This document shows, piece after piece, positions 46,043 to 64,000 of a stretch of DNA of 64,000 nucleotides. The stretch comes from Halomarina oriensis. Lineage in GTDB: Archaea > Halobacteriota > Halobacteria > Halobacteriales > Haloarculaceae. The position numbers and the translations under genes were made by a program. The notes under the pieces were generated by a model. The model saw only the letters and a program-made list of their open reading frames with translations, was not told where the DNA came from and made no database searches. The stretch is from contig NZ_WSZK01000038.1 in the NCBI RefSeq assembly GCF_009791395.1, positions 1 to 64,000 of the forward strand, given 5' to 3'. Position 1 is the stretch's first letter; the number at the start of each line of letters is the position of its first letter.

Positions 46043-46145
46043 CAACGAGCACGGAGGGGACTGGTTCGCGTCGATGGCGAAGCCGACGCACCCCGTCCGG
46101 CTCCATGACGAACTCCTCGTGCCGTCGTCGGTTCGTGGACCAGCC

Positions 46146-47168
46146 ATGACCACGACACTCGAACCGATCGAACCGTACCGCGCCGTCGAACTGTACCTCG
46201 GACAACGTGAGACCGAGGTCGCCGCCAGTACACTCCAGACCCATCGCTCCCGCCTGCGCGCGTTCCTGCGCTGGTGCGAACTGGAGGAAATCGGCAATAT
46301 GAACGATCTGACGGGGCGCAAGCTCCACGAGTTCCGCATCTGGCGGCGGAACGATGGCGATCTCAATCGCGTCAGTGAGAAGACGCAGATGCAGACCCTT
46401 CGCGTCTTCATCCGGTGGTGTGAGTCGATCGAGGCCGTTGATGCCGACCTCTCGACGAAGGTCCAGTCACCCAGCCTCGCTACATCTGACGACTCTCGTG
46501 ATGTGATGCTCAGCGCCGACCGAGCGACCGCGGTACTCTCATACCACGAGAAGTACCACTACGCGTCACTCGAACACGTTACCCTCGCACTCCTGTGGCA
46601 CACCATGATGCGCCGGGGGTCTGCTCGCGCGCTCGACGTCGAGGACTACCACACCGATGAGAGGTATCTCGAGGTTGTTCACCGGCCCGACACAGGCACG
46701 CCCCTGAAGAACAAGGCTGATGGCGAGCGTCTGGTCGCACTCTCTGAGCAGATGTGTACGCTACTGGACGACTGGGTCGCCGACCAGCGTCCCAGTGTTG
46801 AAGACGAGCACGGACGTCAACCGTTGTTGGCGACACTGCGTGGTCGTCTTGGCGCGAGTACAATCACTACATACGCGTATCGAGCCACTCGTCCTTGCAT
46901 CTACACTGACGGCTGCCCACATGACCGCGACATCGAGTCCTGTGACGGTACAGATGTTGATCTGGCATCGAAATGTCCCAGCAGTGTCTCTCCCCACGCC
47001 ATGCGGCGAGGGTCGATTACCCACTCGCTGGAAGAGGGTACCCCAGATAAGGTCATCAGTGACCGGGCCAACGTGAGTCAGGGCATCCTCGACAAGCACT
47101 ATGATCGACGAGACGAGCGCACGAAAATGGAACAACGGAGAGACTACCTTGACAGGACTCGAATGTAG
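46146..47168 (+). CDS. Tyrosine recombinase / phage-type integrase
   Basis: 340 aa from the ATG at 46146 (MTTTLEPIEPYRAV). A SAM-like N-terminal DNA-binding domain (residues 5-105: AASTLQTHRSRLRAFLRWCE) is followed by the catalytic domain. Arg I is in HTMMRRGSARALDVEDY, the H-x-x-R box is SPHAMRRGSITHSL and the nucleophile Tyr is in LDKHYDRRDE. A cysteine-bearing insertion (CIYTDGCPHDRDIESCDGTD) in the catalytic domain is common in haloarchaeal integrases. Its position at the composition change marks it as the mobility gene of the island that follows. Confidence 0.93.
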   Translation: MTTTLEPIEPYRAVELYLGQRETEVAASTLQTHRSRLRAFLRWCELEEIGNMNDLTGRKLHEFRIWRRNDGDLNRVSEKTQMQTLRVFIRWCESIEAVDADLSTKVQSPSLATSDDSRDVMLSADRATAVLSYHEKYHYASLEHVTLALLWHTMMRRGSARALDVEDYHTDERYLEVVHRPDTGTPLKNKADGERLVALSEQMCTLLDDWVADQRPSVEDEHGRQPLLATLRGRLGASTITTYAYRATRPCIYTDGCPHDRDIESCDGTDVDLASKCPSSVSPHAMRRGSITHSLEEGTPDKVISDRANVSQGILDKHYDRRDERTKMEQRRDYLDRTRM

Positions 47169-50104: not shown

Positions 50105-52348
50105 TCAGTCATCTGATACGATGCCAGTAGCAGTCCGGTCCCTAGGCGCTAACTCCTGTGTTGCTGCGATGCCCATCACAGGAAGAAGCGCCTTCCCTAG
50201 AACCGTTCCGGCGAGCGGTGGGACGGCGTTCCCAATCTGGCGGAACCAGCTGGTGAATGGTCCGAGGAAGATGTAGTCATCAGGGAAGGATTGCAACCGT
50301 GCCGCCTCCCGTGGGGTAATTCCCCGGTTTCGCTCAGGGTCGGCTTGTTCAGGGGACGGACGGGCATGTTCGTAGAAGTCTGGCAGGATGTACCCGTTCG
50401 CGTCCTTGGCAAGGTGGGCCACAATCGTCGGCGAGGGCTCTGACCAGACGAGTTTGCGGTACTTGTCTCCGAACCGGGGGTTGTCCTCGGTACCAACATC
50501 GTACTCGACGTACTCCGCGTACTCTCCATCCGAGCCAAACACGACGTCCCAGCTCGTCTCACCTGGCTCGAGTGCCTCGTCGAAGAGAATCTGATCCTTC
50601 GCCATGGGATGTTCCCGGGCCTGATGGTTGTAGCAGAGGTCCGTTCCCTCGTGGAGTCCGTTTTCCGTCACAAACTGACTTTTCGAGCCGAGACCTCGTT
50701 CTGCCAGCACCCTCCCGCCCTCGCCCCGTCGCAGACGAGGGAGTCCAGCAAGGCCCTGCTGGAGCGAACGCACCGAGTCCGCCTGTGGCAGTCCATCTAG
50801 GAGCGTACTGACGTCATCCGGCGTGTCTACCAGATCATCTCGAATACCAACGAGCAGGACGCGACTGCGCTCTTGGGGAACACCGAATTCGGTCATGTCC
50901 TTGAGCCGGAAGTCAACTTGGTAGCCTGAGCCGTTCGCACCGAGAGCCTCGAGGTCGTTCATGACCCAGTCGATGACACGCTCGCCCGTGTCGCCTACCT
51001 CGTTGATCATCCCCTCGACGTTCTCCATCACGATCGCCTTCGGTCGAAGCGCATCGACCACCTCGACGTACTGCGTGTAGAGCGTCGTCCGCTCGTCATC
51101 GAGCACCGAGTAGTCGTCGTCTTTGGCTCGCCTGGATCGATATCCAGCCTTCGACAAAGATTGGCAGGGTGGCCCTCCTACAACCAGATCCGGGTCGGTG
51201 ACTGTATCTCGAATCTGGTTGACGAGGTCAATCTCGCGGACATCTCCCTGGACGATGTTGCTATGAGGAATTTCCGGGTGGTTCAGTCGGTACGTGGCGA
51301 CTGCATCAGGATCGATATCAATCGCCCAGCGGATGTCGTACCCAGCACGGGAGAGACCGGTTGATAGACCTCCTGCACCCGCAAACAGATCGACGACAGT
51401 CGGTCCAGTGTGTTCAGTCTCTTGCTGGCGCAGACGATAGCTCAGGAGGAACTTTCGCAGATCGCAGGTATCGCTACAGAGAACGTCCTCTGAGGAGACA
51501 GTGTGTGTGGAAAGAGCCCGAAACAGTGCTGGTACCTGACGGTCGATGAGCTTGTCTTCTAGGTCAGTTCGGCGACCGCTCTCGTCCTCCAGAGCGTCTG
51601 GAGTGAGCAGGCCAAGTTCGCAAAGCAGTCTATCGACATCGGGGTCCGTAGGCCAGACTGGTTTGTCGAATGCAGTCTGAACGAGCCACCAGGCGTCATC
51701 CGTATCGATACCCGGGATAGTGAGAAGGAACTTGACGTACGTCCCATACTGTACGTTGGAGAACCCGCAGAGAGTGACCCCATCCGTGTAGTGTGTCTCT
51801 TCGACCCGTTCGAGTAATTTGGTGATTCGGGAGATTCGCTCGTCACTCACCCCCTTTCGGGGGGTTGCCGCTTCCAGTGCGGTTCGCAGCGCGTCGTGCT
51901 CCATCACGGCAATCTCCTTCCAGGTGCCGACCTGGTCACGGAGTGAGGCAACTGTCTTGCGCGGGGGACGATCGAAGAACCGCTCGGCAGGCGTCAGCCC
52001 ATCGCTGCCCAGTACGACAGCAGCGACTGTATCGAGGGGGTCGTCGCTTCCAATCAGCGGGTCACCACAGTGGCACGCCTCTCCCGACGACTTCCCGGTA
52101 CGCCCGTGCACCGTGTCGTATCGGCAGGCATCACAGTCACCCGACCGGTTCCGTGCAAGTTGCGCAGGAGTTGCCAGGGGGCAGCCCCCTGGTGGCAAGC
52201 GCTGGCGACGAAGGTGTTCCGCAGTCAGGGTATCGATGAGAAATTCCGTGTTGTCGAGGAGGAGTTGCTCGTGCATCTCACGCTCGGCGGGGGGCACGGG
52301 TTCAACCCGCGCCAGAAGAGAACCGCACGACGTGACCGATTCAGGCAT
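50105..52348 (-). CDS. drmMII: C5-cytosine DNA methyltransferase (DrmMII type) with N-terminal Cys cluster and HhH-GPD-like domain
   Basis: 747 aa from the ATG at 52348, which has an unusually strong GGGGGG Shine-Dalgarno-like stretch just before it. The catalytic domain starts near residue 316 with VVDLFAGAGGLSTGLSRAGY. The PCQ nucleophile motif GGPPCQSLSK has Cys395, and IVMENVEGM and QERSRVLLVG follow. The closing motif is QIGNAVPPLAG. The N-terminus is unusual. CDACRYD and ACHCG (Cys72, 75, 92, 94) look zinc-binding. Residues ~170-305 read like an endonuclease III/HhH-GPD unit (FLLTIPGIDTDDAWWLVQTA, WPTDPDVDRLLCELGLL). The catalytic Asp is kept there but the Lys is absent and only two of four cluster cysteines remain. 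In DISARM this enzyme marks host DNA. Confidence 0.9.
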   Translation of the reverse strand: MPESVTSCGSLLARVEPVPPAEREMHEQLLLDNTEFLIDTLTAEHLRRQRLPPGGCPLATPAQLARNRSGDCDACRYDTVHGRTGKSSGEACHCGDPLIGSDDPLDTVAAVVLGSDGLTPAERFFDRPPRKTVASLRDQVGTWKEIAVMEHDALRTALEAATPRKGVSDERISRITKLLERVEETHYTDGVTLCGFSNVQYGTYVKFLLTIPGIDTDDAWWLVQTAFDKPVWPTDPDVDRLLCELGLLTPDALEDESGRRTDLEDKLIDRQVPALFRALSTHTVSSEDVLCSDTCDLRKFLLSYRLRQQETEHTGPTVVDLFAGAGGLSTGLSRAGYDIRWAIDIDPDAVATYRLNHPEIPHSNIVQGDVREIDLVNQIRDTVTDPDLVVGGPPCQSLSKAGYRSRRAKDDDYSVLDDERTTLYTQYVEVVDALRPKAIVMENVEGMINEVGDTGERVIDWVMNDLEALGANGSGYQVDFRLKDMTEFGVPQERSRVLLVGIRDDLVDTPDDVSTLLDGLPQADSVRSLQQGLAGLPRLRRGEGGRVLAERGLGSKSQFVTENGLHEGTDLCYNHQAREHPMAKDQILFDEALEPGETSWDVVFGSDGEYAEYVEYDVGTEDNPRFGDKYRKLVWSEPSPTIVAHLAKDANGYILPDFYEHARPSPEQADPERNRGITPREAARLQSFPDDYIFLGPFTSWFRQIGNAVPPLAGTVLGKALLPVMGIAATQELAPRDRTATGIVSDD

Positions 52349-52413
52349 GGTCCCCCCTTTAGCGGCTAGTAATTTAAACTCCCTGGTCACTCAGCCAATG
52401 AGAGTCATCGATT

Positions 52414-52430
52414 GCTAGACTACGGCTGCC
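52414..52430 (-). promoter_or_regulatory. 17-base motif upstream of the cytosine methylase gene, shared with the drmA upstream region
   Basis: GGCAGCCGTAGTCTAGC on the minus strand, 66-82 bases before the ATG at 52348. The near-identical GGTAGCCGTAATCTAGC (15 of 17) lies before drmA at 60079-60095. A shared sequence before two transcription units of one system suggests a common regulator site. Confidence 0.4.
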
Positions 52431-52436
52431 TGCCGG

Positions 52437-52468
52437 TGTTTCTAAGGTCGCTATTCGAGTTAGAAACA
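52437..52468. promoter_or_regulatory. Perfect inverted repeat between the methylase and glycosylase genes
   Basis: TGTTTCTAA (52437-52445) and TTAGAAACA (52460-52468) form perfect 9-base arms 14 bases apart, 58 bases upstream of the glycosylase ATG. An operator for a dimeric regulator is the simplest reading. A short RNA hairpin is possible. Confidence 0.5.
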
Positions 52469-52525
52469 GGGCAATCGCTTCCGCCGACCGGACTCGCAAG
52501 GATGAGCAGGTTGTGACTTGAATGT

Positions 52526-53305
52526 ATGACTTCGACGGATCACCCATTTGGCCGAACTACCACAACGCTCGACGAACTTCACGGGTGTGTCGATGTCACT
52601 GATGCAAAGCGAGTGCTCAATTCCATTGGCGTGGCGAAACCAGACAAGGCCGTAGAAGGATTTCTCGATCAGATGCCCACACTGCTCGCGTGGCTCGATG
52701 AGCACGGCCGGGACTACCCGTGGCGACGAGCGAGCGATCCATGGCAGATCTACGCCAGCGAGATCCTTCTCCAGCGGACACGGAGTGATGCCGTCGCAGA
52801 CATCTACCCGGAGTTCTTCGCACAGTTCCCCTCCGCCCGGTGTCTCCTCGAGGCCGATGAGGAAGACCTCCGCAGCATCGTTCACCCACTTGGATTCGTC
52901 AATCACCGGGTTCGGACACTACGAGAAGCGGCAGAACTCTGCGCAGAAGTTCAGGACGAGGTACCTGCTGATCTCGAAGCCCTTCAGCAACCCTGGCGAG
53001 TGGGTCCGTATACGGCCCGAGCCTGTCTGCTGTTCGCGTTCGACCAGCCGATGGCCCTTGTGGACACGAACACGGCTCGAATCGTGGGCAGAGTATTCGA
53101 TTACCCGCTACCCGAACAACCGCACAAGAGTACACGTGTCCAGCGACTGCTCGATGCGCTCGCACCTGACAACCCTGCGCTGGCGCGGGCTTTCAATCTA
53201 GCGCTGCTCGATCTGGGAGCACTGGTCTGTACCAGTGAGAATCCGAACTGCCCGGCGTGTCCGCTTGCAGAGGGATGTGAGTACGCACAAACGGGAGACG
53301 TCTAA
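52526..53305 (+). CDS. HhH-GPD DNA glycosylase with 4Fe-4S cluster, Mig.MthI-like (T:G mismatch) or MutY-like
   Basis: 259 aa. The order of motifs is that of the MutY/Mig branch: RDYPWRRASDPWQIYASEIL with Glu79, LLQRT, the hairpin WRVGPYTARACLLFAF with Tyr162 in place of the endonuclease III lysine, and MALVDTNTARIV with catalytic Asp180. The cluster cysteines are 235, 242, 245 and 251 (C-x6-C-x2-C-x5-C). It lacks the C-terminal Nudix-like domain by which MutY reads 8-oxoguanine. That, plus its place next to a cytosine methylase, favours the Mig.MthI role: removing T from T:G pairs left when 5-methylcytosine deaminates. Its last four bases overlap the convergent drmC. Confidence 0.85.
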   Translation: MTSTDHPFGRTTTTLDELHGCVDVTDAKRVLNSIGVAKPDKAVEGFLDQMPTLLAWLDEHGRDYPWRRASDPWQIYASEILLQRTRSDAVADIYPEFFAQFPSARCLLEADEEDLRSIVHPLGFVNHRVRTLREAAELCAEVQDEVPADLEALQQPWRVGPYTARACLLFAFDQPMALVDTNTARIVGRVFDYPLPEQPHKSTRVQRLLDALAPDNPALARAFNLALLDLGALVCTSENPNCPACPLAEGCEYAQTGDV

Positions 53306-54246
53306 TCCAGCAACGAGACAGAGGACGCTGCGTCCGATTCGAACAGGAACCACACTAGGTCACGGAAGCTATCGACAGGTGGCCCTTCCAGCAAAATCCC
53401 TGTCTCGAGGTAGTGTTCGAACCCGTAGTCGGTGACATTGGCACTCCCGACGTATGCCTTCGAGTTATCGAAGACGATTACTTTCGAATGGAGGGTGAAC
53501 GCGGGAGTTGCACCACTCTGACGACGTTGTTGCTGAGGGACGTCAGCGTCCCATTGCGTGTAATCTACAAACCTGAGGAGGGCTGGCTCGACATCTCGAT
53601 CCTCCGCTCGTTCGGCGAACGACTTCAGCACGGTACGATTGTAGGAGTCAGAATCCATCAGATACCGAGACACGAACGTCACCTCGACACCACGCTCCAG
53701 TGCAGCGAGGAGGACGTCTTCGAGATGGGAGAACCCATCCGCCTCGAAGAACGGGACAAGGAGCGTGATGGAGTTCTCAGCCTGTTTGATCTCCCGTGTG
53801 AGCGCGGGCATCAGCCACGACATCCCGAACGATGTAGGGTCAACATCACTGAAAGCGGGATCGGCAGGAAACGTCACGAGCGGTGTAGCCGTCGTTGCAG
53901 GGGGCTGGCGGTCCTGGAACGCTCTCACACTCTGGGCCGCGTACCGCGCCTGCTCGAGTGTCTGGCGACAGCGAGAGACATCGACTCGAAAGGTGCTGTC
54001 ATTGATGCCAGTATTGAACGTGTCTCGTTCGATTGCCCCCGCCTCCGTAAGCTGACGAAACAGGTCGCTCGCGGTCTCTACAGATAAATCGGTGTCACGA
54101 GCCACCCCCGCTGGTGTCACGAGGTCGTTACGACCCCCTGCCAGTACGAGCCGTCCCTCGAGTTGCGATAGCAGCTGCTCGTCACGGTCAACGTATTCGG
54201 CGATTGCGAGAGGCGGCCAGGATGGGTTAGATTCGTCGTGAGACAT
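53302..54246 (-). CDS. drmC: DISARM protein DrmC (phospholipase D fold)
   Basis: 314 aa. The N-terminal ~100 residues resemble a winged helix (LVTPAGVARDTDLSVETASD). The phospholipase D domain follows: SITLLVPFFEADGFSHLEDV, VTFVSRYLM, and the HKD motif LHSKVIVFDNSKAYVGSANV (H-x-K-x4-D, then GSAN) near residue 245. Only one HKD is clear. DrmC is the least essential DISARM part in known systems. The 48-base spacing from drmB and common strand put it in the drmABC operon. An alternative is a generic PLD nuclease, but the neighbours fix the call. Confidence 0.88.
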   Translation of the reverse strand: MSHDESNPSWPPLAIAEYVDRDEQLLSQLEGRLVLAGGRNDLVTPAGVARDTDLSVETASDLFRQLTEAGAIERDTFNTGINDSTFRVDVSRCRQTLEQARYAAQSVRAFQDRQPPATTATPLVTFPADPAFSDVDPTSFGMSWLMPALTREIKQAENSITLLVPFFEADGFSHLEDVLLAALERGVEVTFVSRYLMDSDSYNRTVLKSFAERAEDRDVEPALLRFVDYTQWDADVPQQQRRQSGATPAFTLHSKVIVFDNSKAYVGSANVTDYGFEHYLETGILLEGPPVDSFRDLVWFLFESDAASSVSLLD

Positions 54247-54294
54247 GGTTCGGAGAGCGTTATGGGGATTTTGGGAACGGAAGGTACTGACGCA

Positions 54295-56253
54295 CTATAG
54301 CGTCCAGTATCCGTCGATATCCTTGTCGGTGTTCGGACGACTTCCGAAGAGGTAGTCCCGGGACAGGACCTGGTTGAAGAACGAGCAACTGATCTCGCTC
54401 ACGTGGAGGCACGAGAGGCAGGCACCACCCCGCTGTGAGCACACCGGGTCGTAGACACACTCGTTCCCGTGCGACTCGGCCTGCCCGAGGAGGTTGTCGA
54501 GTTGCTGTTCGACCATCGTGTGCATCCCGCCGATGTTGAACTCCTCGCGGTTGTTCGCGTAGATGACGACCGAGAGCGCTCGCGGAAAGAGGAACTCACT
54601 GAGGTTCGTCCGGTCGAACCCGCTGATTGTGCTGGCCTGCTTCAGCAGGATGTGACTCAGAGTGTGGACGAGTTTGAATACGTACTCGGTCACCAGTTCT
54701 TCGACGGAGTCGTCGAGGTCCGTCTGGAAGCGCCCGTACCGTTCGACGGGCGCGAGGTGGTTGAGCAGGAATGCCCACTGTTCCTCGGTGGTGAGTGCGT
54801 CGATCTCGGAGCGTGCATAGTCGATTGCTGCATCGTCACGACCCGTAATCTCGGGCAACGTGATGTCACCGTTGACCGCGCCTAGATCGCTGGTCTCCGG
54901 AATGTTGAGTGCCAGCCAGAGGAGCACACGCGCCGGGTCGAGATCGAACTGCACAGCCTCGGTCTCGGAGGTATCGACGAAGATGGGTGTCCCGTCCCCA
55001 TCGCTGGCGCTCTGTGAGAACGCAGTGATCTGAGCCTCGTCCTCCTCCCGCCCACCACGCGTGTACCCATACACGAACGTCTGAACGGGGAAATCCTCGA
55101 TGACCCGGACATCGTCGAAACCGAGATGGTCGAGGTCGTCGCGGTAGCTGCTAATCCGGTCGGCCTTGTCGCTGAAGCCACGCCCACGCGCTGCCGATTC
55201 GAGTTCGGGAAGCGTCTCGGTGGTCAGGGACTCCCGGCTGAGGACGTACTGAAGAATCTCGTCACCGGCCTCTGTAAGCTCGGACCCCTCGCCATCCGCG
55301 TCGAGCACGAGCAGCTGACCGAGGCGCTCGTTCGCTGTCTGGCTTCCCAGGTTGCCCTGTTCACGGAGGTAATCTCGGGCGGCATCGAGCGTCGTGATGT
55401 CGTCGTGCGTTGAGTAGACCTCGACGACCTTCTCGTCGTCCATCTCGACCTCGCCGATTCGCTGATTCAGGTTGACGTCCTCGATGCGCTGGGCGTCGGT
55501 CAGTCCAAACAGCCTGGCGATGGCCTTCTTCGCGCCATCAGTGGAGTCACGGAGGTGACCGATCCCTGCCGTATGCAGGTTGACGGTGGAGATGTAGTGC
55601 GGGTAGTAGACACTCCCGGCACGGTGGACCGTCGTGTACATCCCGTCGTTCTCGTCACCCGCGGGTGGGATGTAGTCACAGCCGCAATTCTGGTAATTCC
55701 GAATCGGTGTCTCCCACGAGCAGCCACCAACACGGCAACTCCAGTGGAAGTTGCGCACGCGCTGGCTGTCGCGCCGGTCGAGAACGACGTGCTCGTCACC
55801 GTGAGTCGGACACTTCTGAGGGTACAGTCGCCGGAGTTCCCCGCAGGTGTGAACGCTGACGAACTGGTACTGCTCAAGGTTACCGTCGCAGCCACTTCGC
55901 CGACAGGTCAGACCCGGGTTCTTGTTCTGAACGTCGTCCGCGGTGTAGTACCCGTGGACCTTCTCACACTTGCTGCACTCGTAGGTTGTCGGAAACGGTT
56001 CTGCACGGACCCCTTCGGGGACACCGAAGTGGTAGTGGTCCGTGTTTCTCGAGACGAACCCGTTCTGGCCACCCTCCCAGTTACGAACCCGGGCGAGGAC
56101 GCGCTTCAGGATATACTCCTTGCTGACAGTGCCGCTGGCGTCGCTCGTCTCTAACCGCGTCGTCTTCCAGATACCACGCTGGCCGCTGTAGTCGAATGTG
56201 TTCTCGGGCAGGAACTGGTAGAGTACCTGCGACTTGCTTCGTTCCATTGACAT
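54295..56253 (-). CDS. drmB: DISARM protein DrmB (DUF1998)
   Basis: 652 aa from the ATG at 56253, two bases after the drmA stop, so coupled to it. N-terminal cysteine pairs (YECSKCEKVHGYY, LTCRRSGCDG, CGELRR, KCPTHG) make zinc modules near residues 90-160. The C-terminal DUF1998 domain shows HTMVEQQLDNLL, then the Cys pattern CVYDPVC, GGACLSCLHVSEISC and FFNQVLSRDYLFG. In DISARM, DrmB forms a complex with DrmA that loads on incoming DNA. The open frame upstream of 56253 overlaps drmA and is not used. Confidence 0.93.
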   Translation of the reverse strand: MSMERSKSQVLYQFLPENTFDYSGQRGIWKTTRLETSDASGTVSKEYILKRVLARVRNWEGGQNGFVSRNTDHYHFGVPEGVRAEPFPTTYECSKCEKVHGYYTADDVQNKNPGLTCRRSGCDGNLEQYQFVSVHTCGELRRLYPQKCPTHGDEHVVLDRRDSQRVRNFHWSCRVGGCSWETPIRNYQNCGCDYIPPAGDENDGMYTTVHRAGSVYYPHYISTVNLHTAGIGHLRDSTDGAKKAIARLFGLTDAQRIEDVNLNQRIGEVEMDDEKVVEVYSTHDDITTLDAARDYLREQGNLGSQTANERLGQLLVLDADGEGSELTEAGDEILQYVLSRESLTTETLPELESAARGRGFSDKADRISSYRDDLDHLGFDDVRVIEDFPVQTFVYGYTRGGREEDEAQITAFSQSASDGDGTPIFVDTSETEAVQFDLDPARVLLWLALNIPETSDLGAVNGDITLPEITGRDDAAIDYARSEIDALTTEEQWAFLLNHLAPVERYGRFQTDLDDSVEELVTEYVFKLVHTLSHILLKQASTISGFDRTNLSEFLFPRALSVVIYANNREEFNIGGMHTMVEQQLDNLLGQAESHGNECVYDPVCSQRGGACLSCLHVSEISCSFFNQVLSRDYLFGSRPNTDKDIDGYWTL

Positions 56254-56255
56254 TG

Positions 56256-59200
56256 TTATCGGTTGTTGTAGGTTTCGAGGATGTCGTTGTACTTCCACTC
56301 GGGCTGAATCGGGAGCTGTGCATCGACGTCGCGCAGGCTGCGCATCGCAGACTGTGGCAGGCGGTCGCTGGTCCACTGGCGATCGCTCAACTGAACCTCC
56401 GAGACCGACAGCTCCGTGAGTTCCATTGTGTCCACCCGGAACTCCTCGGGCAACTGGTCGCCTCCGTACATGTTGACGAGGATGTCTTCGATCTCGCTGT
56501 CGTCAACCGTCGCCAGGAAGTCCTCGGCCTGGTTTCCGAAGAACAGCCGACCGGCGTCCTCCGAGTACATGTAGTGGTTGAGCAACAGAGACATGAACAG
56601 TCCCGGATGGGTGCGCTTGACGCTGTTTTTCGCCCAGCGGTTCACCGACACCGGTTCGACCAGCCGGTCGAGGAACTGGTGGTACTTCTCGAAGAAGTGG
56701 TAGTGACTCAGGTCCCGTTCACGGATGGGGTGGAGGACGTTGAACACCAGGCCGGGGTGCGAGCGACCTGCCCGCGAACTGGACTGAATGTACTCCGCGG
56801 TTGCGCGTGGCATCCCGAAGAAGACCATCATGTTGAACCGGTCAACGTCCACGCCGTGGCTGATCATGCTGGTCGCAGTTACGGCGTTGGGTCGGTAGGC
56901 TAGCAGCCAGGCAAGCCCCTCACGGACCTCGGGGGAGGCTGCCCGCATCGCCACGCGGAACTCCTGTCTCGGCGAACGATCCGGGTCAAGTTCCGCGGCC
57001 AGCAGGTCACGGAGCTCGGTGACCTCCGGTATGATATCCTCGTCGAGGACGTCGTCATCGCCGAGTTCTCGGAGCAGCTGTTCGTCCGCGTCCTCCTGCC
57101 ACGGGTCGTCCAGTCGGTCGAGAATCGTCTGGACCTTCTCAAAGGGCGTCCCGCCCGTCATCCGCTCAGAGTTGAGCGGTGGGCGGCCCTCGCCGCGGAG
57201 GTAGGCGTTAAGCTGGCTGACGAACGACTGATCGAGACGGTCGCCGTCCTTCTTCGACAGCAGGTAGGTCAGACTCGTGCTGTAGAGCGTAAGGCTGTCG
57301 ATGACCTCGGCGATCGAGTCCGCCGCCAGCGGTTCGGTCGTGTCGGTCCCCTCGAGCGCGACACCTGTCAGAAGGTCCTCTGGCGATTCCATTGCCAGAT
57401 GCAGGAGGTCCTGTACCTCCTCGTGGAACGTGAACAGGATGTCGATGATCGAATTGATGTGGGTCTTCCCGTGTGGGATGAGCCCCAGGTAGTAGCGCTG
57501 GGTCTCTGGCTGTTCCTTCGCGTAGAAGTTCTCGCGCAGGTACGGCCCCGGAGACGGGAACCGTTCAGCCGGGCGCAGGAACAGGTGGTAGACCTGGTCC
57601 TCGTACGCGGTGATGGTTGCGGTTGGCGCGAGAATCTTCGTCTTCCCGGCGTCCACGAGTTCCTGAAGCGTCTGTACACCGGTCTCGTAGTGACCGTCGA
57701 AACTGCCAACGCTCTCCTCGAGCAGGTGCAGTTCGTCGGGGACCATCAGCGAGGGCGCGGGGTCGTAGACGTCGATTGGCGACGCCATGAGCTCGAACTC
57801 GTCCCGGTCGATGTCACAGCCGTACTTCTCGGTACACTCGCCGAGGCTGGCGAACCCGTGCCGTGGACACTCATACTCCATCTCGCCGGTGAGGATGTGG
57901 GCCATCTTCCGCTGGTAGCCAACGGCGGTGATCTTGTCGATGGTTCCGGCGAGGATGCTCGGTGCGTAGCGGTAGAGTTCGTTGTCGACGACGTGGATCG
58001 GGAGTTCGTCCTCCGCGTACACCTCGTTGATGTCGGTCTCGCGCTGTTGCCACGCGCACTCGAAGGGGTTCCCCTGGCAGGCATGAGCGAGACGATGGTT
58101 GTCGGTGACCTGCATCTCTACCCGGGACCCGCAGACCGGACAGCTCGGGACGACCTTCGCGTCCTCGCGGAGGCTTGCGTCCTGCTTGTAGCGACTGTAG
58201 TTGTCGTTGTTGTAGCCGGTGAGAGCGTTTGGTGTGTTCTTCTTGCCGACGAGGAAGCCGACGCTGAACGGACGGGACGGACGGCTCCCGATGTCGGGTT
58301 GTTCACGCCGGACGAGGTCCGCGTACATGATGGTCTCCGACATCCGCTGGAGTTGCTGGAGAGACAGCAACCGGAGCGGGAACCGCGTCCACGTGGTGAC
58401 GCCGAAGTGCTTCCCGCGGATGCGGTCGAAGAACATGTTCCAGATGGCGACCCCGAAGAACGCCTCCGATTTCCCACCACCAGTGGGGAACCAGAGGACA
58501 TCGACCACCTCGAGCGCTCCCTCTGCGTTCTCGAAGCGCTCGCCGAGTGACTCCTCGTCGCGCCAGCTGATCTCGTCCCACTCGTCATATTCCCGGCCCG
58601 CGATGTCGGGGACGAGCATAACGATGAACACCAGTTGGAACAGTCGCCACGTATCGAAGTCGTGCATCCGGTCCATCGACTCGTTCATCAACTCGAACGC
58701 GCGACCAACGTCGTCCGGGTGTTCGTGGAGGACTCGGATGCCGCGCCGGAAGCGCGCGATTTCCCGCTCAAACGCCTCGCGGTCTTCATCGAAGTCCTCA
58801 CGATCAGCCTCCGTCCAGTCCTCGCGCTTCTGGTATTCGCTAAGCGCTGCGGGGTAGGCCGTTTCGAGGTAGTCGTCCATCGCGTCGGCGACAGTATCGA
58901 GGACCTCGTACCCACCTCCCTGGAGGTCTGCGAGTTCACTGAACGCCGGATTCACACCACGGTCGGCTGACTCGTAGACGAGCTGGCGGTACTCGGGGAT
59001 GAACTCTGTGCGGAGGTGACTGGTGTGCGGGTTGGCACGAGGAGCCGAACGCCCCGGCGTTTTCCCCGCACCCGTCGTCTCCTCGTAGTCGGGAGCGTTG
59101 ATGGTGCAGTTCCGGCCGTGCCCCCACAGGTCCCGGTTGTACCGGAAGTCCTCGGGGAGGGGGTCGAAGGTGAACGGGACGAACTCGAGGGAGCCCTCTG

Positions 59201-60068
59201 TCTGGAACTCGAGTTCCACCTCGAACAGCGTCGGGTCGCGGATGGTGTAGACGTGGTCCCGCTTCGTCTGCTCGCCGGTGTTCGTCACCTCGATGTCCAG
59301 TAGCAGTTCGCCGTTCTGGCTCTCGCGGTCCTCGGTGGTCGTCACCTGAAGGTCCATGTCCCATTCGGGCAGTGCTGGCGTCCCCTCTCGATCATTGAGG
59401 TACTCGGTGTACGCTGTCTCGCTCTCGAGGGCGTGGGCGGGAACGTCGTCGTCAGGCTTCTCCTCACCGTTGTCGAGGTAGATGTCGCCCCGGGCTGCCG
59501 CCTGCTGACGCGCGTTTTCGACGGCGTCACTGATCGCCTCGGTGGCACGGTCACGGATGGCCTGTGGCGTGTTGCGGGTCGCCTCGGCGATCTCCTCGAA
59601 CGGGATCTCGATGGAGGGGACGTCGAGTTCGAGACGCTCGAAGACGGGAAGGAGGTTCGTCTTGGCAGTCTCAGCATCCTCCCGGTCGGCGAGTGAGATG
59701 TAGTCGTCGCGCTGGTCCATCTCCTCGAAGGTTGGGTTGACCCGCACCCAGACGCTCGCCGAGATGTCGATGGTCAGCACATCACTTTCCGAACCGTTCC
59801 GGACGCGGGTCATGGTCCCGAGCGCGTACGGCTCCATCTTCGACTGGAGGTCGTCGTCGTCACTGCCCTCGACCCTGTCCGCGTCGTGGGCTGCGAGCGC
59901 ACCAGCGAAGAACCGGTCGCTTGGGAAGTCGCGCTTCACCCGATGGGGTTCGTCGTCGGTGTCGAGATTCCCGCTGACGCGGTCTGTGATTCGCTTTCGC
60001 AGGTGGCGAGCGATGCGTTCTTCGTCGCCGGGAGGGTCGGCCCCCGAGCCAGATAGTTCACCTGACAT
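56256..60068 (-). CDS. drmA: DISARM protein DrmA (large SF2 helicase)
   Basis: 1270 aa. Helicase motifs in order: Walker A VLWFPTGGGKSEAFFG (about residue 530), Walker B in MVPDELHLLEE (about 770), motif III-like ILAPTATITAYEDQ, and motif VI in SSSRAGRSHPG (about 1,095), preceded by SHGVDVDRFNMMVFFGMPRA. Cysteine pairs (VPSCPVCGSRV and others) sit inside the helicase core, as is usual for the family. The first ~500 residues are the DrmA-specific region. It is first in the drmABC operon and divergent from the adenine methylase gene. Confidence 0.94.
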   Translation of the reverse strand: MSGELSGSGADPPGDEERIARHLRKRITDRVSGNLDTDDEPHRVKRDFPSDRFFAGALAAHDADRVEGSDDDDLQSKMEPYALGTMTRVRNGSESDVLTIDISASVWVRVNPTFEEMDQRDDYISLADREDAETAKTNLLPVFERLELDVPSIEIPFEEIAEATRNTPQAIRDRATEAISDAVENARQQAAARGDIYLDNGEEKPDDDVPAHALESETAYTEYLNDREGTPALPEWDMDLQVTTTEDRESQNGELLLDIEVTNTGEQTKRDHVYTIRDPTLFEVELEFQTEGSLEFVPFTFDPLPEDFRYNRDLWGHGRNCTINAPDYEETTGAGKTPGRSAPRANPHTSHLRTEFIPEYRQLVYESADRGVNPAFSELADLQGGGYEVLDTVADAMDDYLETAYPAALSEYQKREDWTEADREDFDEDREAFEREIARFRRGIRVLHEHPDDVGRAFELMNESMDRMHDFDTWRLFQLVFIVMLVPDIAGREYDEWDEISWRDEESLGERFENAEGALEVVDVLWFPTGGGKSEAFFGVAIWNMFFDRIRGKHFGVTTWTRFPLRLLSLQQLQRMSETIMYADLVRREQPDIGSRPSRPFSVGFLVGKKNTPNALTGYNNDNYSRYKQDASLREDAKVVPSCPVCGSRVEMQVTDNHRLAHACQGNPFECAWQQRETDINEVYAEDELPIHVVDNELYRYAPSILAGTIDKITAVGYQRKMAHILTGEMEYECPRHGFASLGECTEKYGCDIDRDEFELMASPIDVYDPAPSLMVPDELHLLEESVGSFDGHYETGVQTLQELVDAGKTKILAPTATITAYEDQVYHLFLRPAERFPSPGPYLRENFYAKEQPETQRYYLGLIPHGKTHINSIIDILFTFHEEVQDLLHLAMESPEDLLTGVALEGTDTTEPLAADSIAEVIDSLTLYSTSLTYLLSKKDGDRLDQSFVSQLNAYLRGEGRPPLNSERMTGGTPFEKVQTILDRLDDPWQEDADEQLLRELGDDDVLDEDIIPEVTELRDLLAAELDPDRSPRQEFRVAMRAASPEVREGLAWLLAYRPNAVTATSMISHGVDVDRFNMMVFFGMPRATAEYIQSSSRAGRSHPGLVFNVLHPIRERDLSHYHFFEKYHQFLDRLVEPVSVNRWAKNSVKRTHPGLFMSLLLNHYMYSEDAGRLFFGNQAEDFLATVDDSEIEDILVNMYGGDQLPEEFRVDTMELTELSVSEVQLSDRQWTSDRLPQSAMRSLRDVDAQLPIQPEWKYNDILETYNNR

Positions 60069-60078
60069 CTTGCGTTTC

Positions 60079-60108
60079 GCTAGATTACGGCTACCCTACA
60101 TATAGCTT
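60079..60108 (-). promoter_or_regulatory. drmA promoter with the shared 17-base motif
   Basis: On the minus strand GCTATATGTAGG provides a TATA box about 30-40 bases before the drmA ATG at 60068. The 17-mer GGTAGCCGTAATCTAGC follows it directly (60095-60079). A protein bound there would cover the expected transcription start. Confidence 0.5.
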
Positions 60109-60112
60109 CGGG

Positions 60113-60155
60113 TCAGATTGGCGTCTATTAGTGCATTAGCACGACGCCAATCTGA
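60113..60155. promoter_or_regulatory. Perfect 12-base inverted repeat between drmA and the adenine methylase gene
   Basis: TCAGATTGGCGT (60113-60124) and ACGCCAATCTGA (60144-60155) flank a 19-base spacer. The site lies just beyond the drmA TATA box and about 160 bases from the divergent start at 60314, well placed to control both. Confidence 0.6.
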
Positions 60156-60163
60156 ACGACAGT

Positions 60164-60227
60164 GGCCGCGCGGGTGAGCACGCGCAGCGCTCACCCGCGT
60201 GCGCGAGCGCTCACGCGCGAAGCGGCC
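60164..60227. repeat. GC-rich nested hairpin upstream of the adenine methylase gene
   Basis: GCGGGTGAGC (60170-60179) pairs with GCTCACCCGC (60189-60198). GAGCGCTCACGCGC words continue the symmetry, and GGCCGC/GCGGCC form outer arms. The block contrasts with the AT-rich bases on both sides and could form a cruciform or an RNA structure, or act as a terminator. A TATA-like ACTATTATATG follows at about 60,239-60,249, before the ATG at 60314. Confidence 0.45.
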
Positions 60228-60313
60228 GTACATCTCAACTATTATATGTCAGTGGTGTCGCTGGTTGAATATCCACCAGGGGCGCTGCTCCGGTGTCTCC
60301 TGATCCACCACAC

Positions 60314-63300
60314 ATGTCGGAACAATCTCGTCCATACCGCACGAACCGCGATCTCTTCTCCAACCACTACCTCACGAACCACCTGCGCCAGACCGAGCCC
60401 TGGCAGAGTGTTGACGATGAGGAAGTCCGAGAGGCCTACGACGAGATTCGAACGCTCTGGGAGGACAGAGAGGGCCGTGTTGACGACTACAACGAGGCAC
60501 AGCTGGAGCGGAACTTCATCCGACTCATATTCGACCTTCTCAACATCCCGTTCGAGATTGAGGAGACGGTCATGCGGAACGCTCGCCGTCCGGACTACGG
60601 GTTCTTCCCGAGTGCTGACGCAGCGGACGCGGCCTTCGACCGTGACGACTTCTACGAGGAAGCGATTGCTGTCGCCGACGCCAAGCGCTGGGGACGCAAG
60701 CTCGACACTCGTGGTGAGGAGAAGCGCGACTTCGAGAACCCGAGCTACCAGATTCACGCCTACCTCCAAGAGACCCCCGTGCAGTGGGCCGTCCTGACCA
60801 ACGGTGAACACTGGCGACTCTACTACGGGCCGACCAGCCACCGACTGGACTCCTACTACGAGATCGATCTCCCCGAAATCCTCCGATACGTCGAGGAAGA
60901 GGGCAATCTGAAGGACTTCAAGGACTTCTACCTGTTCTTCCAGCAGGAGGCGTTTCTTCCTGACCAGTCGGGAGACTGCTTCCTCGACGACGTCTACGAC
61001 GAGTCGAGCGTCTTCGCGGAGGCAATCGGTGAGGACCTCCAAGAGAACATCTACGAGGCCATCCGTGTTCTGGCCGAAGGGTTCCTCGACACGAACGACG
61101 ACCTCGACGAGGACGACCTGCCGTTAATCCACGACAGTTCGCTCATCTACCTGTACCGTCTCATTTTCGTCCTCTACGCGGAGAGTGAAGGACGTGACCT
61201 CCTGCCCACAGAGAACGAGATCTACAGTGCAAGCTACAGTCTGAATGACCTGAAACAGACGGTCACTGACAAGCGTAAAGCAACACAGCAGCACTACCAG
61301 ACCTGGCAGACCAACCTGTGGGACCGCCTCGAGGAACTGTTCGTCCTCATCGACCAAGGGAGCCAGGGAATGGACATTCCGAAGGACCAACTCTACGTTC
61401 CCGCGTACAATGGTGGGCTCTTCCGAACCAATCCCGGCCCGGACGATAGTCAAGAGGCCCTGTTCCTCGCGTCCCACGAGGCTGACGACGCCCACCTCGC
61501 AGAAGTCATCGAACTCCTCACCCGCCGAGATGCAGACGAGGGCGATGGTCAGGTCTTCGTGGATTACTCCTCGCTCGACGAACGCCACCTCGGGTCGATT
61601 TACGAGGGGCTGCTCGAGTACAGAATTGACGTTGCCGATGAACCACTGACAGTTGAGGACGGCGAGTACTCACCCGCCGTAGACGATGACGAAGTTGTTG
61701 TTCCGGAAGGCGACGTATTCCTCCGTACGGACGATGGTGAGCGGAAGACCACAGGGTCGTACTACACACCCGAGTACGTTGTCGAGTACATCGTCGATGA
61801 AACGCTCGGCCCACTCGTTGACGATATTCGGTCGGACCTCGTCTCCGAAAGTGCCGACACGACCCACGAGCGCGAGGGCTTTGCCGGGGAGTTCGCGGAC
61901 CGTGTGTTCGACCTGAAGGTTCTCGACCCTGCGATGGGGAGTGGACACTTCCTCGTGAACGCAGTAGACTATCTCGCCCGGGAGATCATCGACGCCCAAG
62001 AGAGGCAGGATTACCAGGCCGTCGAGTCCGGAGATGAGGACGCAATTAGCGACCCGACCACCGAAGATGGCGAGTTACGGGACATCAACTGGGCACGCCG
62101 AAAAGTTGCCCAACAGTGTCTTTACGGAGTGGACGTGAATCCGCTTGCTACGGAGCTGGCAAAGGTGTCGTTGTGGCTGCGGACACTTGCTGCCGAGCAA
62201 CCACTGGCGTTCCTTGATCACCACCTCAAGACGGGCAACTCTCTCATCGGCAGTGACATTGAGGACGTTCTGAGCGCCGAGAACCAAGGGACTGGTCAGA
62301 CCCAGCTCACCGACTGGATGGAGCAAGCTCGCCAACGTGCGCTTGAACACGTTATGGAGCGCTTCACCGATCTTCTCTCCATCGACAACGAGACGCTGGA
62401 AGATATCAAAGAGATGGAAGAAGTCTACGAGGAAGTACGTAGTGACGCACTCTACCAGCACCTCCTTGCTATGGCAAATGTATACACCGCCGCTGAGTTC
62501 GGTCTCTTGGTCCCCGACGACGCTGAAAAGCAGATGGCAGAGGCCCTCCGTGACGATTCTTGGTCTGATATTGAGAATAAGAGTTGGTTCCAAGAAGCAC
62601 AAACGATGGCTGAAAAGAATTCCTTCTTCCACTGGGAACTGGAGTTCCCTGTTGCGTTCTATGGAGAAGGAGGGGAGCGGGTAACAGACGCTGGGTTTGA
62701 TGCGGTTATCGGGAACCCACCATACGTCCGAATGGAGGAATTCAAATCTGCAAAGACCTACTTAGAGATAGAGTACACAACACATGCTGCGCGAACTGAT
62801 TTGTACGTGTACTTTATTGAGCAGTCACTAGATGTTCTTCGTAGCCAAGGAGAGTATGGGTCAATAGTTTCAAATAAATTTATAAGGGCCAATTATGGAC
62901 GCACTATACGAAAAATCCTTGGTGAGTCAACAAATGTCCGAGAGATCGTTGATTTTGGGGGATTGCCTGTTTTCCCCGACGCGACGGTCCGATCATCGAT
63001 ACTGTTGACCCAAAAGACGAGCCCAACTCCTCACCCCCTCCGATACACTGCAATCGAATCCCTCTCATTCAGTTCGTTACCAGAGGCGGTTGAAGAGTTT
63101 GGTGTGGATGTCGATGCAACCAATATTCAGGACGATGAATGGAGGCTTGTCAGTAAGTCCATATCGAACTTGATGGAGAAGATAGAGACAGATGGTATCC
63201 AATTAGCTCGGTTTGAAGGTGGTACGCAGGTATGCCGTGGCATTGTGACTGGTCGGAACGAAGCATTCTTTATTGATGAATCGGAGCGACAGTCGCTCAT

Positions 63301-64000
63301 TGAGTCTGACTCAAAGAGTGAAGAAGTCATTCACCCACTTGTGCGAGGTGAGGACATTCGGCCATATCACATTGGGTCCACTGAGTCCCACATCATATAT
63401 CTAACAGAAGAGACAAACATCGACCGGTATCCTGCCGTCGAGGAACACCTCGAAGAGTACAGAAAAGGTCTAGAAAGTCGCGCCACTGAGCAGAGGTGGT
63501 TCGAGTTACAGCAACCACAAGAGGCGTACATTGAATTTTTCGAGGGGAGCAAAATCCTCTATCCAGAGATTGCTCCTGAGACGCGATTCGCCTACGACAA
63601 GGGTCCGCTTTATCCAAACAACAAGTGTTTCTTCATTCCGACAGACGACCAATATCTTGTAGCTGTGCTGAACAGTTCTCTGTCCCTCTTCTACCTCCAG
63701 CAAGTCGTCGCCAAGCTGGAAGGGTCGTCGTCGGACAGCCTCTACTACGAATTCAGATCACAGTATATGGAAAAATTCCCAGTGCCCAACACAGAAAAGG
63801 ACGATGGCGAACTCGCAGCCTTGGCTGATGAAATGAGCCAACTTTCGGACAGGCGAGCGTCTCTCAATCTCAACCTGCTCGATTATCTTGGCAACTACTC
63901 TGAGGGCGCAAATCTGCCGAATATTGGGATATTCCAGCCAGCGTCAGTAAATATTCTTGAAGAGACCACAGAGGAGTACGAGAAGCTCCAAGTGGGGAAC
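60314..64000 (+). CDS. drmMI: N6-adenine DNA methylase of DrmMI / type IIG (Eco57I-like) kind, C-terminus outside window
   Basis: 1,229 codons are present and the frame is still open at the window end. Residues 60-130 carry a nuclease-like pattern: RRPDYGFF (Pro93-Asp94) then VADAKRW (Asp122-x-Lys124), a PD-(D/E)xK arrangement. The methylase core has motif I VLDPAMGSGHFLVNAV (about residue 538), QCLYGVDVNPLATELAKVSL, and motif IV VIGNPPYVRMEEF (about residue 800). A target-recognition region follows, visibly AT-richer from about 62,550 to 63,650. Divergent from drmA, it fits DrmMI, the adenine methylase of class 1 DISARM. Similar proteins are also type IIG restriction-modification enzymes, so cutting cannot be ruled out. 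Confidence 0.88.
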   Translation, partial: MSEQSRPYRTNRDLFSNHYLTNHLRQTEPWQSVDDEEVREAYDEIRTLWEDREGRVDDYNEAQLERNFIRLIFDLLNIPFEIEETVMRNARRPDYGFFPSADAADAAFDRDDFYEEAIAVADAKRWGRKLDTRGEEKRDFENPSYQIHAYLQETPVQWAVLTNGEHWRLYYGPTSHRLDSYYEIDLPEILRYVEEEGNLKDFKDFYLFFQQEAFLPDQSGDCFLDDVYDESSVFAEAIGEDLQENIYEAIRVLAEGFLDTNDDLDEDDLPLIHDSSLIYLYRLIFVLYAESEGRDLLPTENEIYSASYSLNDLKQTVTDKRKATQQHYQTWQTNLWDRLEELFVLIDQGSQGMDIPKDQLYVPAYNGGLFRTNPGPDDSQEALFLASHEADDAHLAEVIELLTRRDADEGDGQVFVDYSSLDERHLGSIYEGLLEYRIDVADEPLTVEDGEYSPAVDDDEVVVPEGDVFLRTDDGERKTTGSYYTPEYVVEYIVDETLGPLVDDIRSDLVSESADTTHEREGFAGEFADRVFDLKVLDPAMGSGHFLVNAVDYLAREIIDAQERQDYQAVESGDEDAISDPTTEDGELRDINWARRKVAQQCLYGVDVNPLATELAKVSLWLRTLAAEQPLAFLDHHLKTGNSLIGSDIEDVLSAENQGTGQTQLTDWMEQARQRALEHVMERFTDLLSIDNETLEDIKEMEEVYEEVRSDALYQHLLAMANVYTAAEFGLLVPDDAEKQMAEALRDDSWSDIENKSWFQEAQTMAEKNSFFHWELEFPVAFYGEGGERVTDAGFDAVIGNPPYVRMEEFKSAKTYLEIEYTTHAARTDLYVYFIEQSLDVLRSQGEYGSIVSNKFIRANYGRTIRKILGESTNVREIVDFGGLPVFPDATVRSSILLTQKTSPTPHPLRYTAIESLSFSSLPEAVEEFGVDVDATNIQDDEWRLVSKSISNLMEKIETDGIQLARFEGGTQVCRGIVTGRNEAFFIDESERQSLIESDSKSEEVIHPLVRGEDIRPYHIGSTESHIIYLTEETNIDRYPAVEEHLEEYRKGLESRATEQRWFELQQPQEAYIEFFEGSKILYPEIAPETRFAYDKGPLYPNNKCFFIPTDDQYLVAVLNSSLSLFYLQQVVAKLEGSSSDSLYYEFRSQYMEKFPVPNTEKDDGELAALADEMSQLSDRRASLNLNLLDYLGNYSEGANLPNIGIFQPASVNILEETTEEYEKLQVGN

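What the first reader, a model, noticed from the sequence alone, without database searches (positions are those of the whole stretch)
50105..64000. DISARM locus with both an adenine and a cytosine methylase
drmA-drmB-drmC are contiguous on the minus strand. Published DISARM class 1 uses an N6-adenine methylase (drmMI, with the helicase drmD) and class 2 a C5-cytosine methylase (drmMII, with drmE). Here both kinds flank one drmABC core, an adenine enzyme divergent from drmA and a cytosine enzyme downstream of drmC. This is either a hybrid class with double marking of host DNA or a class 1 system that captured a neighbouring cytosine methylase. The rest of the locus beyond 64,000 (drmD or not) decides the class.
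Basis: partly seen in the sequence, partly recalled or inferred. Interest (0 to 1): 0.85.

Follow-up and report, generated by a model that had tools for sequence, protein, structure and literature searches.

The report
Haloarchaeal DISARM with three DNA methylases
A salt-loving archaeon carries a divergent DISARM antivirus system in which one DNA-adenine and two DNA-cytosine methylases, plus a mismatch-repair glycosylase, surround the core genes; the methylase set recurs in at least 15 haloarchaeal species, so the cytosine enzymes are a built-in part and not a stray neighbour.

Summary
In detail: drmA, drmB and drmC lie together on the minus strand, with an adenine methylase divergent from drmA and a cytosine methylase beyond drmC. 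The locus continues past the window: the adenine methylase ends at 64450, an SNF2 helicase follows (64443-67391), then a second cytosine methylase (67433-68788).

The cytosine enzymes are not passengers. All 15 haloarchaeal genomes with a close DrmA (of 391 searched) carry both, usually at the two ends of the locus, and 19 of 20 full-length relatives of the first enzyme lie near a DrmA. Trees split the locus into two histories, {DrmA, DrmB, DrmC} and {SNF2 helicase, both cytosine methylases}; the adenine methylase is exchanged separately.

"Both methylases in one DISARM" is not new: the studied Serratia system has both. The SNF2 helicase resembles BREX BrxHII more than canonical DrmD, and the DISARM proteins fall below NCBIfam cut-offs, so this is a divergent variant, not a clean class 1 member. 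Function is inferred; methylation sites and antiviral activity are untested.

The parts
50105..52348 (-). M5C1: C5-cytosine methylase (C-terminal half, PF00145) fused to an endonuclease-III-fold N-terminal half; ORF extends to a GTG at 52390, the conserved start is the ATG at 52348
52526..53305 (+). HhH-GPD glycosylase of the Mig.MthI thymine-DNA-glycosylase type, divergent from M5C1
53302..54246 (-). drmC, PLD-family nuclease (HxKxxxxD motif)
54295..56253 (-). drmB, DUF1998-type protein with conserved cysteines (ORF opens at 56376; relatives start at the ATG at 56253)
56256..60068 (-). drmA, SF2 helicase (FPTGGGK, DELH)
60293..64000 (+). drmMI-like N6-adenine methylase (DPAMGSG, NPPY) with a conserved N-terminal PD...DAK motif; leaves the window and ends at contig position 64450. 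Beyond the window on the same contig scale follow the SNF2 helicase in the drmD position (64443-67391, +) and the second C5-cytosine methylase M5C2 (67433-68788, +)
   Evidence: adenine methylase; SNF2 helicase; M5C2:

Best explanation
A divergent haloarchaeal branch of DISARM with class-1 layout and a fixed double cytosine-methylation arm. The three methylases mark the host genome at different sites: one exchangeable m6A specificity and two m5C specificities. Following the published Serratia model, DrmAB loads on unmarked invading DNA (single-stranded or with a 5' overhang), uses ATP to move along it and blocks or exposes it. DrmC, and perhaps the nuclease-like N terminus of the adenine methylase, cut it. 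The SNF2 helicase shares its history with the two cytosine methylases, so it is the part most likely to read or depend on the cytosine mark. The thymine-glycosylase-like enzyme beside M5C1 removes T from the T:G mismatches left when 5-methylcytosine deaminates, which protects the marked sites from mutation. Shown: gene content, motifs, folds, conservation, linkage and separate histories. Inferred: enzymatic activities, marking, antiviral function, the helicase-cytosine link and the repair role.
For: DrmA, B and C are the top PADLOC families for the core, and the only solved structures DrmA and DrmB match are Serratia DrmA (7s9v, E 5e-68) and DrmB (E 1e-4). All 15 close-DrmA genomes carry drmA, drmB, the adenine methylase, the SNF2 helicase, M5C1 and M5C2; drmC was found in 14, the 15th being cut by a contig end. 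Annotated plasmids show a compact unit: in Halarchaeum CBA1220, M5C1-GHKL-drmA-drmB-drmC-drmMI-x-HNH-SNF2-M5C2 (DL31 similar). Distance matrices: drmA-drmB r 0.98; SNF2-M5C1 0.95; M5C1-M5C2 0.94; across the two blocks 0.59-0.81. Trees: drmA and drmB support one clade and reject the other (p-AU 2e-60, 4e-7); SNF2, M5C1 and M5C2 do the reverse (p-AU 1e-4, 6e-6, 1e-4). In the window M5C1 is separated from the SNF2-M5C2 pair by drmCBA and drmMI, so adjacency alone does not explain their shared history. Glycosylase: best PDB match is Mig.MthI (1kea, E 4e-55), with the Tyr and Asp conserved; 16 of its 18 closest homologues lie divergently next to a C5 methylase, half of them at C5 methylases other than M5C1.
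Against: No protein reaches the NCBIfam DISARM cut-offs (DrmA 393/950 bits, DrmB 65/240, DrmC 55/133, DrmD 425/610). The SNF2 helicase fits BrxHII better than DrmD. M5C1+M5C2 also occur once without DISARM, beside a GHKL ATPase (G091). One replacement of a central drmCBA cassette could give the two-block pattern; independent events were not counted. The glycosylase is intact in only 6 of the 15 core loci. No methylome or phenotype data.
Confidence: 0.62

Rival explanations
1. Two nested systems: a divergent DISARM and a separate cytosine restriction-modification module (two C5 methylases, glycosylase, GHKL ATPase, HNH or other nuclease) that only share an address and a mobile island.
For: The M5C1/M5C2 pair stands without DISARM in G091 next to a GHKL ATPase and a possible nuclease ORF. 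MORC-type RM operons with cytosine methylases, SNF2 helicases, VSR and HNH nucleases are known (PMC2292703). Separate histories for {SNF2, M5C1, M5C2} and {DrmABC}.
Against: All 15 close-DrmA genomes keep both cytosine methylases, usually at opposite ends with the DISARM genes between. M5C1 alone is also kept beside three distant class-2-like DISARM loci. No dedicated nuclease accompanies the pair in every locus; the AspBHI_N-HNH protein is in about 10 of the loci and mostly occurs outside DISARM.
Confidence: 0.25
2. Ordinary class 1 DISARM that captured one neighbouring cytosine methylase as a passenger.
For: Two bacterial class 1 loci inspected (Nocardia, Oscillatoria) have no annotated C5 methylase beside them.
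Against: 19 of 20 full-length M5C1 homologues in 391 genomes lie within about 15 kb of a DrmA, and 15 of 15 close-DrmA loci have two cytosine methylases; congruent trees with the SNF2 helicase.
Confidence: 0.05
3. Not DISARM but another YprA-helicase system (ARMADA or BRIGADE) or a BREX/Hma relative.
For: BrxHII-like helicase plus PglX-like methylase are shared with ARMADA (PMC12458937); the SNF2 protein scores best with BrxHII and HmaA.
Against: Separate DrmB and PLD-type DrmC genes are present and DrmA matches only DrmA models in PADLOC and only Serratia DrmA in the PDB; no 7-deazaguanine genes (BRIGADE) were identified among the locus proteins scanned.
Confidence: 0.08

Closest known systems
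Class 1 DISARM of Serratia sp. SCBI (PMC9142583)
   Same: drmA, drmB, drmC core, adenine methylase, and in addition a C5 methylase in the same operon
   Different: Here two C5 methylases, one fused to an endonuclease-III-fold domain, a thymine-glycosylase-like gene, a BrxHII-like SNF2 helicase instead of canonical DrmD, and strong sequence divergence
Class 2 DISARM (drmMII, drmE)
   Same: A cytosine methylase; haloarchaeal loci with a weak DrmE_C match use the same M5C1 family
   Different: No drmE in the window locus; adenine methylase and SNF2 helicase present
ARMADA (PMC12458937)
   Same: YprA-family helicase, BrxHII-like helicase, PglX-like methylase
   Different: Separate drmB and drmC, and cytosine methylases
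Mig.MthI T:G mismatch glycosylase (1kea)
   Same: Fold, FeS cysteines, catalytic Tyr/Asp; gene next to a C5 methylase (for Mig.MthI this neighbourhood is from my own knowledge)
   Different: Part of a DISARM locus; activity untested
MORC-type restriction-modification operons (PMC2292703)
   Same: GHKL ATPase, SNF2 helicase, cytosine methylase, repair enzyme and HNH nuclease occur in several of the related loci
   Different: DrmABC core; the window's own locus has no GHKL gene

Membership tests
DISARM core | SF2 helicase DrmA | tested here: met
   PADLOC DrmA 5e-149, only DrmA models hit; PDB 7s9v DrmA 5e-68; but below the NCBIfam cut-off, 393 of 950 bits
DISARM core | DUF1998 protein DrmB | tested here: met
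   PADLOC DrmB 4e-50; 7s9v_B E 1e-4; below the NCBIfam cut-off
DISARM core | PLD nuclease DrmC | tested here: met
   PADLOC DrmC 7e-14, PF13091; below the NCBIfam cut-off
DISARM class 1 | adenine methylase DrmMI | tested here: met
   Best PADLOC model DrmMI 385 bits against 225 for type IIG; two bacterial controls score 1562 and 1872, so divergent
DISARM class 1 | SNF2 helicase DrmD | tested here: inconclusive
   Present at the right place, but BrxHII 559 > HmaA 414 > DrmD 375 bits in PADLOC; NCBIfam ranks DrmD first at 425 of 610 bits
DISARM class 2 | C5 methylase DrmMII | tested here: inconclusive
   Two C5 methylases; both match general type II C5 models slightly better than DrmMII
DISARM class 2 | DrmE | tested here: not met
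   No DrmE among the locus proteins scanned
ARMADA | YprA helicase of the ARMADA clade | not tested
   No ARMADA models in the libraries at hand; no YprA-family tree was built
BRIGADE | 7-deazaguanine modification genes | tested here: not met
   None found by Pfam/PADLOC among the locus proteins scanned
Mig/TDG-type glycosylase | HhH-GPD fold with catalytic Tyr and Asp and FeS cysteines | tested here: met
   1kea best match; Y162, D180, C235, C242, C245, C251 conserved. T:G activity itself not testable here
Active EndoIII-type glycosylase (M5C1 N-terminal half) | Catalytic Lys and Asp | tested here: not met
   Fold matches EndoIII (E 3e-5), but the catalytic Lys position is not Lys/Tyr and the Asp is not invariant in 20 sequences (read by eye)
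Antiviral defence | Protection against viruses | not testable with these tools
   Needs a laboratory assay

The most novel reading that the evidence does not exclude
The SNF2 helicase and the two cytosine methylases form a self-recognition unit of their own, in which a 5-methylcytosine mark laid by two enzymes gates a DISARM effector. The fused endonuclease-III-like domain and the adjacent thymine glycosylase keep that mark stable. DISARM would then be a modular system that exchanges its effector core, its adenine specificity and its cytosine unit separately.
Probability: 0.35. Interest if true: 0.68.

Novelty: new variant of a known kind. Interest (0 to 1): 0.52.

Why it matters
It is still unclear why DISARM carries methylases when it can restrict phages that lack the methylation sites (PMC9142583). 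A widespread archaeal branch with three methylases, a repair partner for the cytosine mark and separable module histories makes that testable by deleting each mark in turn. It also shows a sizeable archaeal DISARM group that lies below the present NCBIfam cut-offs and is annotated as 'hypothetical' or 'helicase-related' in public records.

Tried and rejected
Passenger hypothesis: rejected by linkage and trees. The AspBHI_N-HNH protein (a predicted methyl-directed nuclease, 75993-77054 on the contig) as a core part: rejected, about 35 genomes have a close homologue and most are outside DISARM loci. N-terminal half of M5C1 as an active glycosylase: not supported by the catalytic positions. A scan of genome contigs for M5C1 outside haloarchaea found only haloarchaea, but the seed patterns were strict; a search of 393 genomes of the phylum gave, besides known carriers, only weak hits to short ORFs that were not followed up. 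The full-length structure model of M5C1 was poor in the target-recognition region and was not used. The original DISARM paper is not held.
Full report
What is there. The window is the first 64,000 bases of a 92,143-base contig of a 4.07 Mb haloarchaeal genome. The locus, in coordinates that run on past the window, is: M5C1 cytosine methylase 50105-52348(-); glycosylase 52526-53305(+); drmC 53302-54246(-); drmB 54295-56253(-); drmA 56256-60068(-); adenine methylase 60293-64450(+); SNF2 helicase 64443-67391(+); M5C2 cytosine methylase 67433-68788(+). Family searches give C5 methylase for M5C1 and M5C2 (PF00145, 6e-57 and 2e-58), PLD for drmC, Eco57I/N6 methylase for the adenine enzyme, HhH-GPD for the glycosylase, and DrmA, DrmB, DrmC and DrmMI as best PADLOC families of the respective proteins. 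GC falls from about 68% to 49-63% at 46 kb, where an integrase gene (46074-47168) lies, so the locus probably sits in an acquired island.

Conservation. DrmA was searched in 391 genomes of the class. 52 have a match and 15 of these are close (about 58-82% identity). M5C1 was searched in the same genomes: 20 have a full-length homologue including the N-terminal half, 19 of them within about 15 kb of a DrmA; the exception is G091. Reading the regions around all 20 shows that each of the 15 close-DrmA genomes has drmA, drmB, the adenine methylase, the SNF2 helicase, M5C1 and M5C2. drmC was seen in 14; in G092 the contig ends there. In G284 and G092 the locus is split over two contig ends. M5C1 and M5C2 lie at opposite ends of the locus in 10 loci (and by inference in the two split ones) and side by side in three (G145, G102, G015). 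Named examples are Natrinema pallidum, Natrinema gari, Halorubrum ezzemoulense, Halarchaeum rubridurum, Halorhabdus salina, Salinarchaeum laminariae and Halorubrum cibi, Natronobeatus ordinarius, and the plasmids of Halarchaeum CBA1220 and archaeon DL31.

Histories. Pairwise distances over the 15 loci give two blocks: drmA with drmB (r 0.98), and the SNF2 helicase with M5C1 (0.95) and M5C2 (0.88), M5C1 with M5C2 (0.94); correlations across blocks are 0.59-0.81, and the adenine methylase correlates poorly with all (0.37-0.52). Maximum-likelihood trees agree. drmA and drmB join G145 to the window's group (support 96/97, 97/95) and reject the alternative (p-AU 2e-60, 4e-7); drmC sides with them (93/93; alternative rejected, p-AU 8e-4). 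The SNF2 helicase, M5C1 and M5C2 join the G034 group to the window's group (100/100, 100/100, 100/99) and reject the first clade (p-AU 1e-4, 6e-6, 1e-4). The two clades were chosen after looking at the distances, so the p values are generous, and one exchange of a central drmCBA cassette could account for the pattern. The adenine methylases of G034 and G260 are nearly identical although the rest of their loci are not, which points to exchange of this gene on its own.

M5C1 and the glycosylase. A profile of 20 M5C1 sequences matches endonuclease III in the PDB over profile positions 137-255 (E 5e-5). A structure model of the N-terminal half (mean pLDDT 84) matches endonuclease III by fold (E 3e-5, probability 1.0). 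The alignment shows four invariant cysteines and no conserved catalytic lysine, so I read it as a DNA-binding or mismatch-sensing remnant rather than an active glycosylase (inference). The separate glycosylase is best matched by the thymine-DNA glycosylase 1kea (E 4e-55) and keeps the Tyr, Asp and FeS cysteines. Of its 18 closest homologues in 391 genomes, 16 lie divergently next to a C5 methylase gene, eight at M5C1 (one of these, G114, with an in-frame stop) and eight at other C5 methylases. This is the signature of a T:G repair partner for 5-methylcytosine. It is intact in 6 of the 15 core loci and interrupted in G034, so it is optional.

Membership. The core is DISARM: drmA and drmB match only Serratia DrmA and DrmB among solved structures. 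Yet no component reaches the NCBIfam cut-off. The SNF2 helicase scores BrxHII 559, HmaA 414, DrmD 375 bits, while the two bacterial control proteins annotated drmD score DrmD 1242 and 1434 and BrxHII about 250-275. The adenine methylase is nearest DrmMI, but with 385 bits against 1562 and 1872 in the controls. The locus therefore has the class 1 layout without a canonical DrmD and with a doubled cytosine arm. Three other haloarchaeal loci (G257, G352, G114) combine a distant DrmA/DrmB with M5C1 and a large protein in place of drmMI and SNF2; that protein has a weak DrmE_C match in G114 (3e-5) and no PADLOC match. G138 is similar and also has M5C2.

Known or new. Having both an adenine and a cytosine methylase is known: the Serratia DISARM operon has both, with ACACAG and YMTCGAKR as reported targets, and DrmAB ATPase activity is lower on DNA with 5-methylcytosine (PMC9142583). 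I found no held paper that describes two cytosine methylases, the endonuclease-III fusion or the glycosylase in DISARM; the original DISARM paper and its supplement are not held, so this is not proof of absence.

How it likely works. Established elsewhere: DrmAB binds single-stranded DNA or 5' overhangs and is less active on methylated DNA (PMC9142583). Inferred here: the three methylases protect the host DNA, DrmAB acts on unmarked viral DNA with DrmC, and possibly the conserved PD...DAK motif of the adenine enzyme (14 of 14 sequences), as nucleases. The SNF2 helicase is tied to the cytosine marks by shared history, and the glycosylase keeps the marked sites from mutating. None of these activities was tested.

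Noticed in passing
contig 75993-77054 (L005:15993-17054, minus): Protein with an AspBHI N-terminal domain (PF18062, methyl-directed nucleases) fused to HNH; relatives lie in about 10 of the related DISARM loci, in most of them between the adenine methylase and the SNF2 helicase, but most close homologues are elsewhere.
   Followed up: partly
G034, G092, G102, G212, G221, G255 loci (e.g. L082:11710-14427) and G091 (L102:13971-16703): A ~905-aa GHKL (MORC-like) ATPase directly upstream of drmA in six related loci and beside M5C2/M5C1 in G091.
   Followed up: partly
G091 (L102:10146-16703): M5C1+M5C2+GHKL ATPase without DISARM: a possible stand-alone cytosine RM-like system.
   Followed up: partly
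60293-64000 (N-terminal part of the adenine methylase): Invariant RRPDYGF...AVADAK motif (PD-(D/E)xK type), suggesting a nuclease domain as in type IIG enzymes.
   Followed up: partly
46074-47168 and the GC drop at 46 kb: Integrase-family gene at the edge of a low-GC island that contains the DISARM locus.
   Followed up: partly
G034 and G260 loci: Nearly identical adenine methylase in otherwise diverged loci: recent exchange of specificity.
   Followed up: no
G207 L073:13853-16906, G034 L081:13846-16932, G212 L091:14263-17349, G102 L078: Extra SNF2 helicase paralogues (about 48-56% identity) near the DISARM loci.
   Followed up: no
G000 contig C24:152866-153807: Second place in the same genome with DNA similarity to the adenine methylase gene (64-70%).
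   Followed up: no
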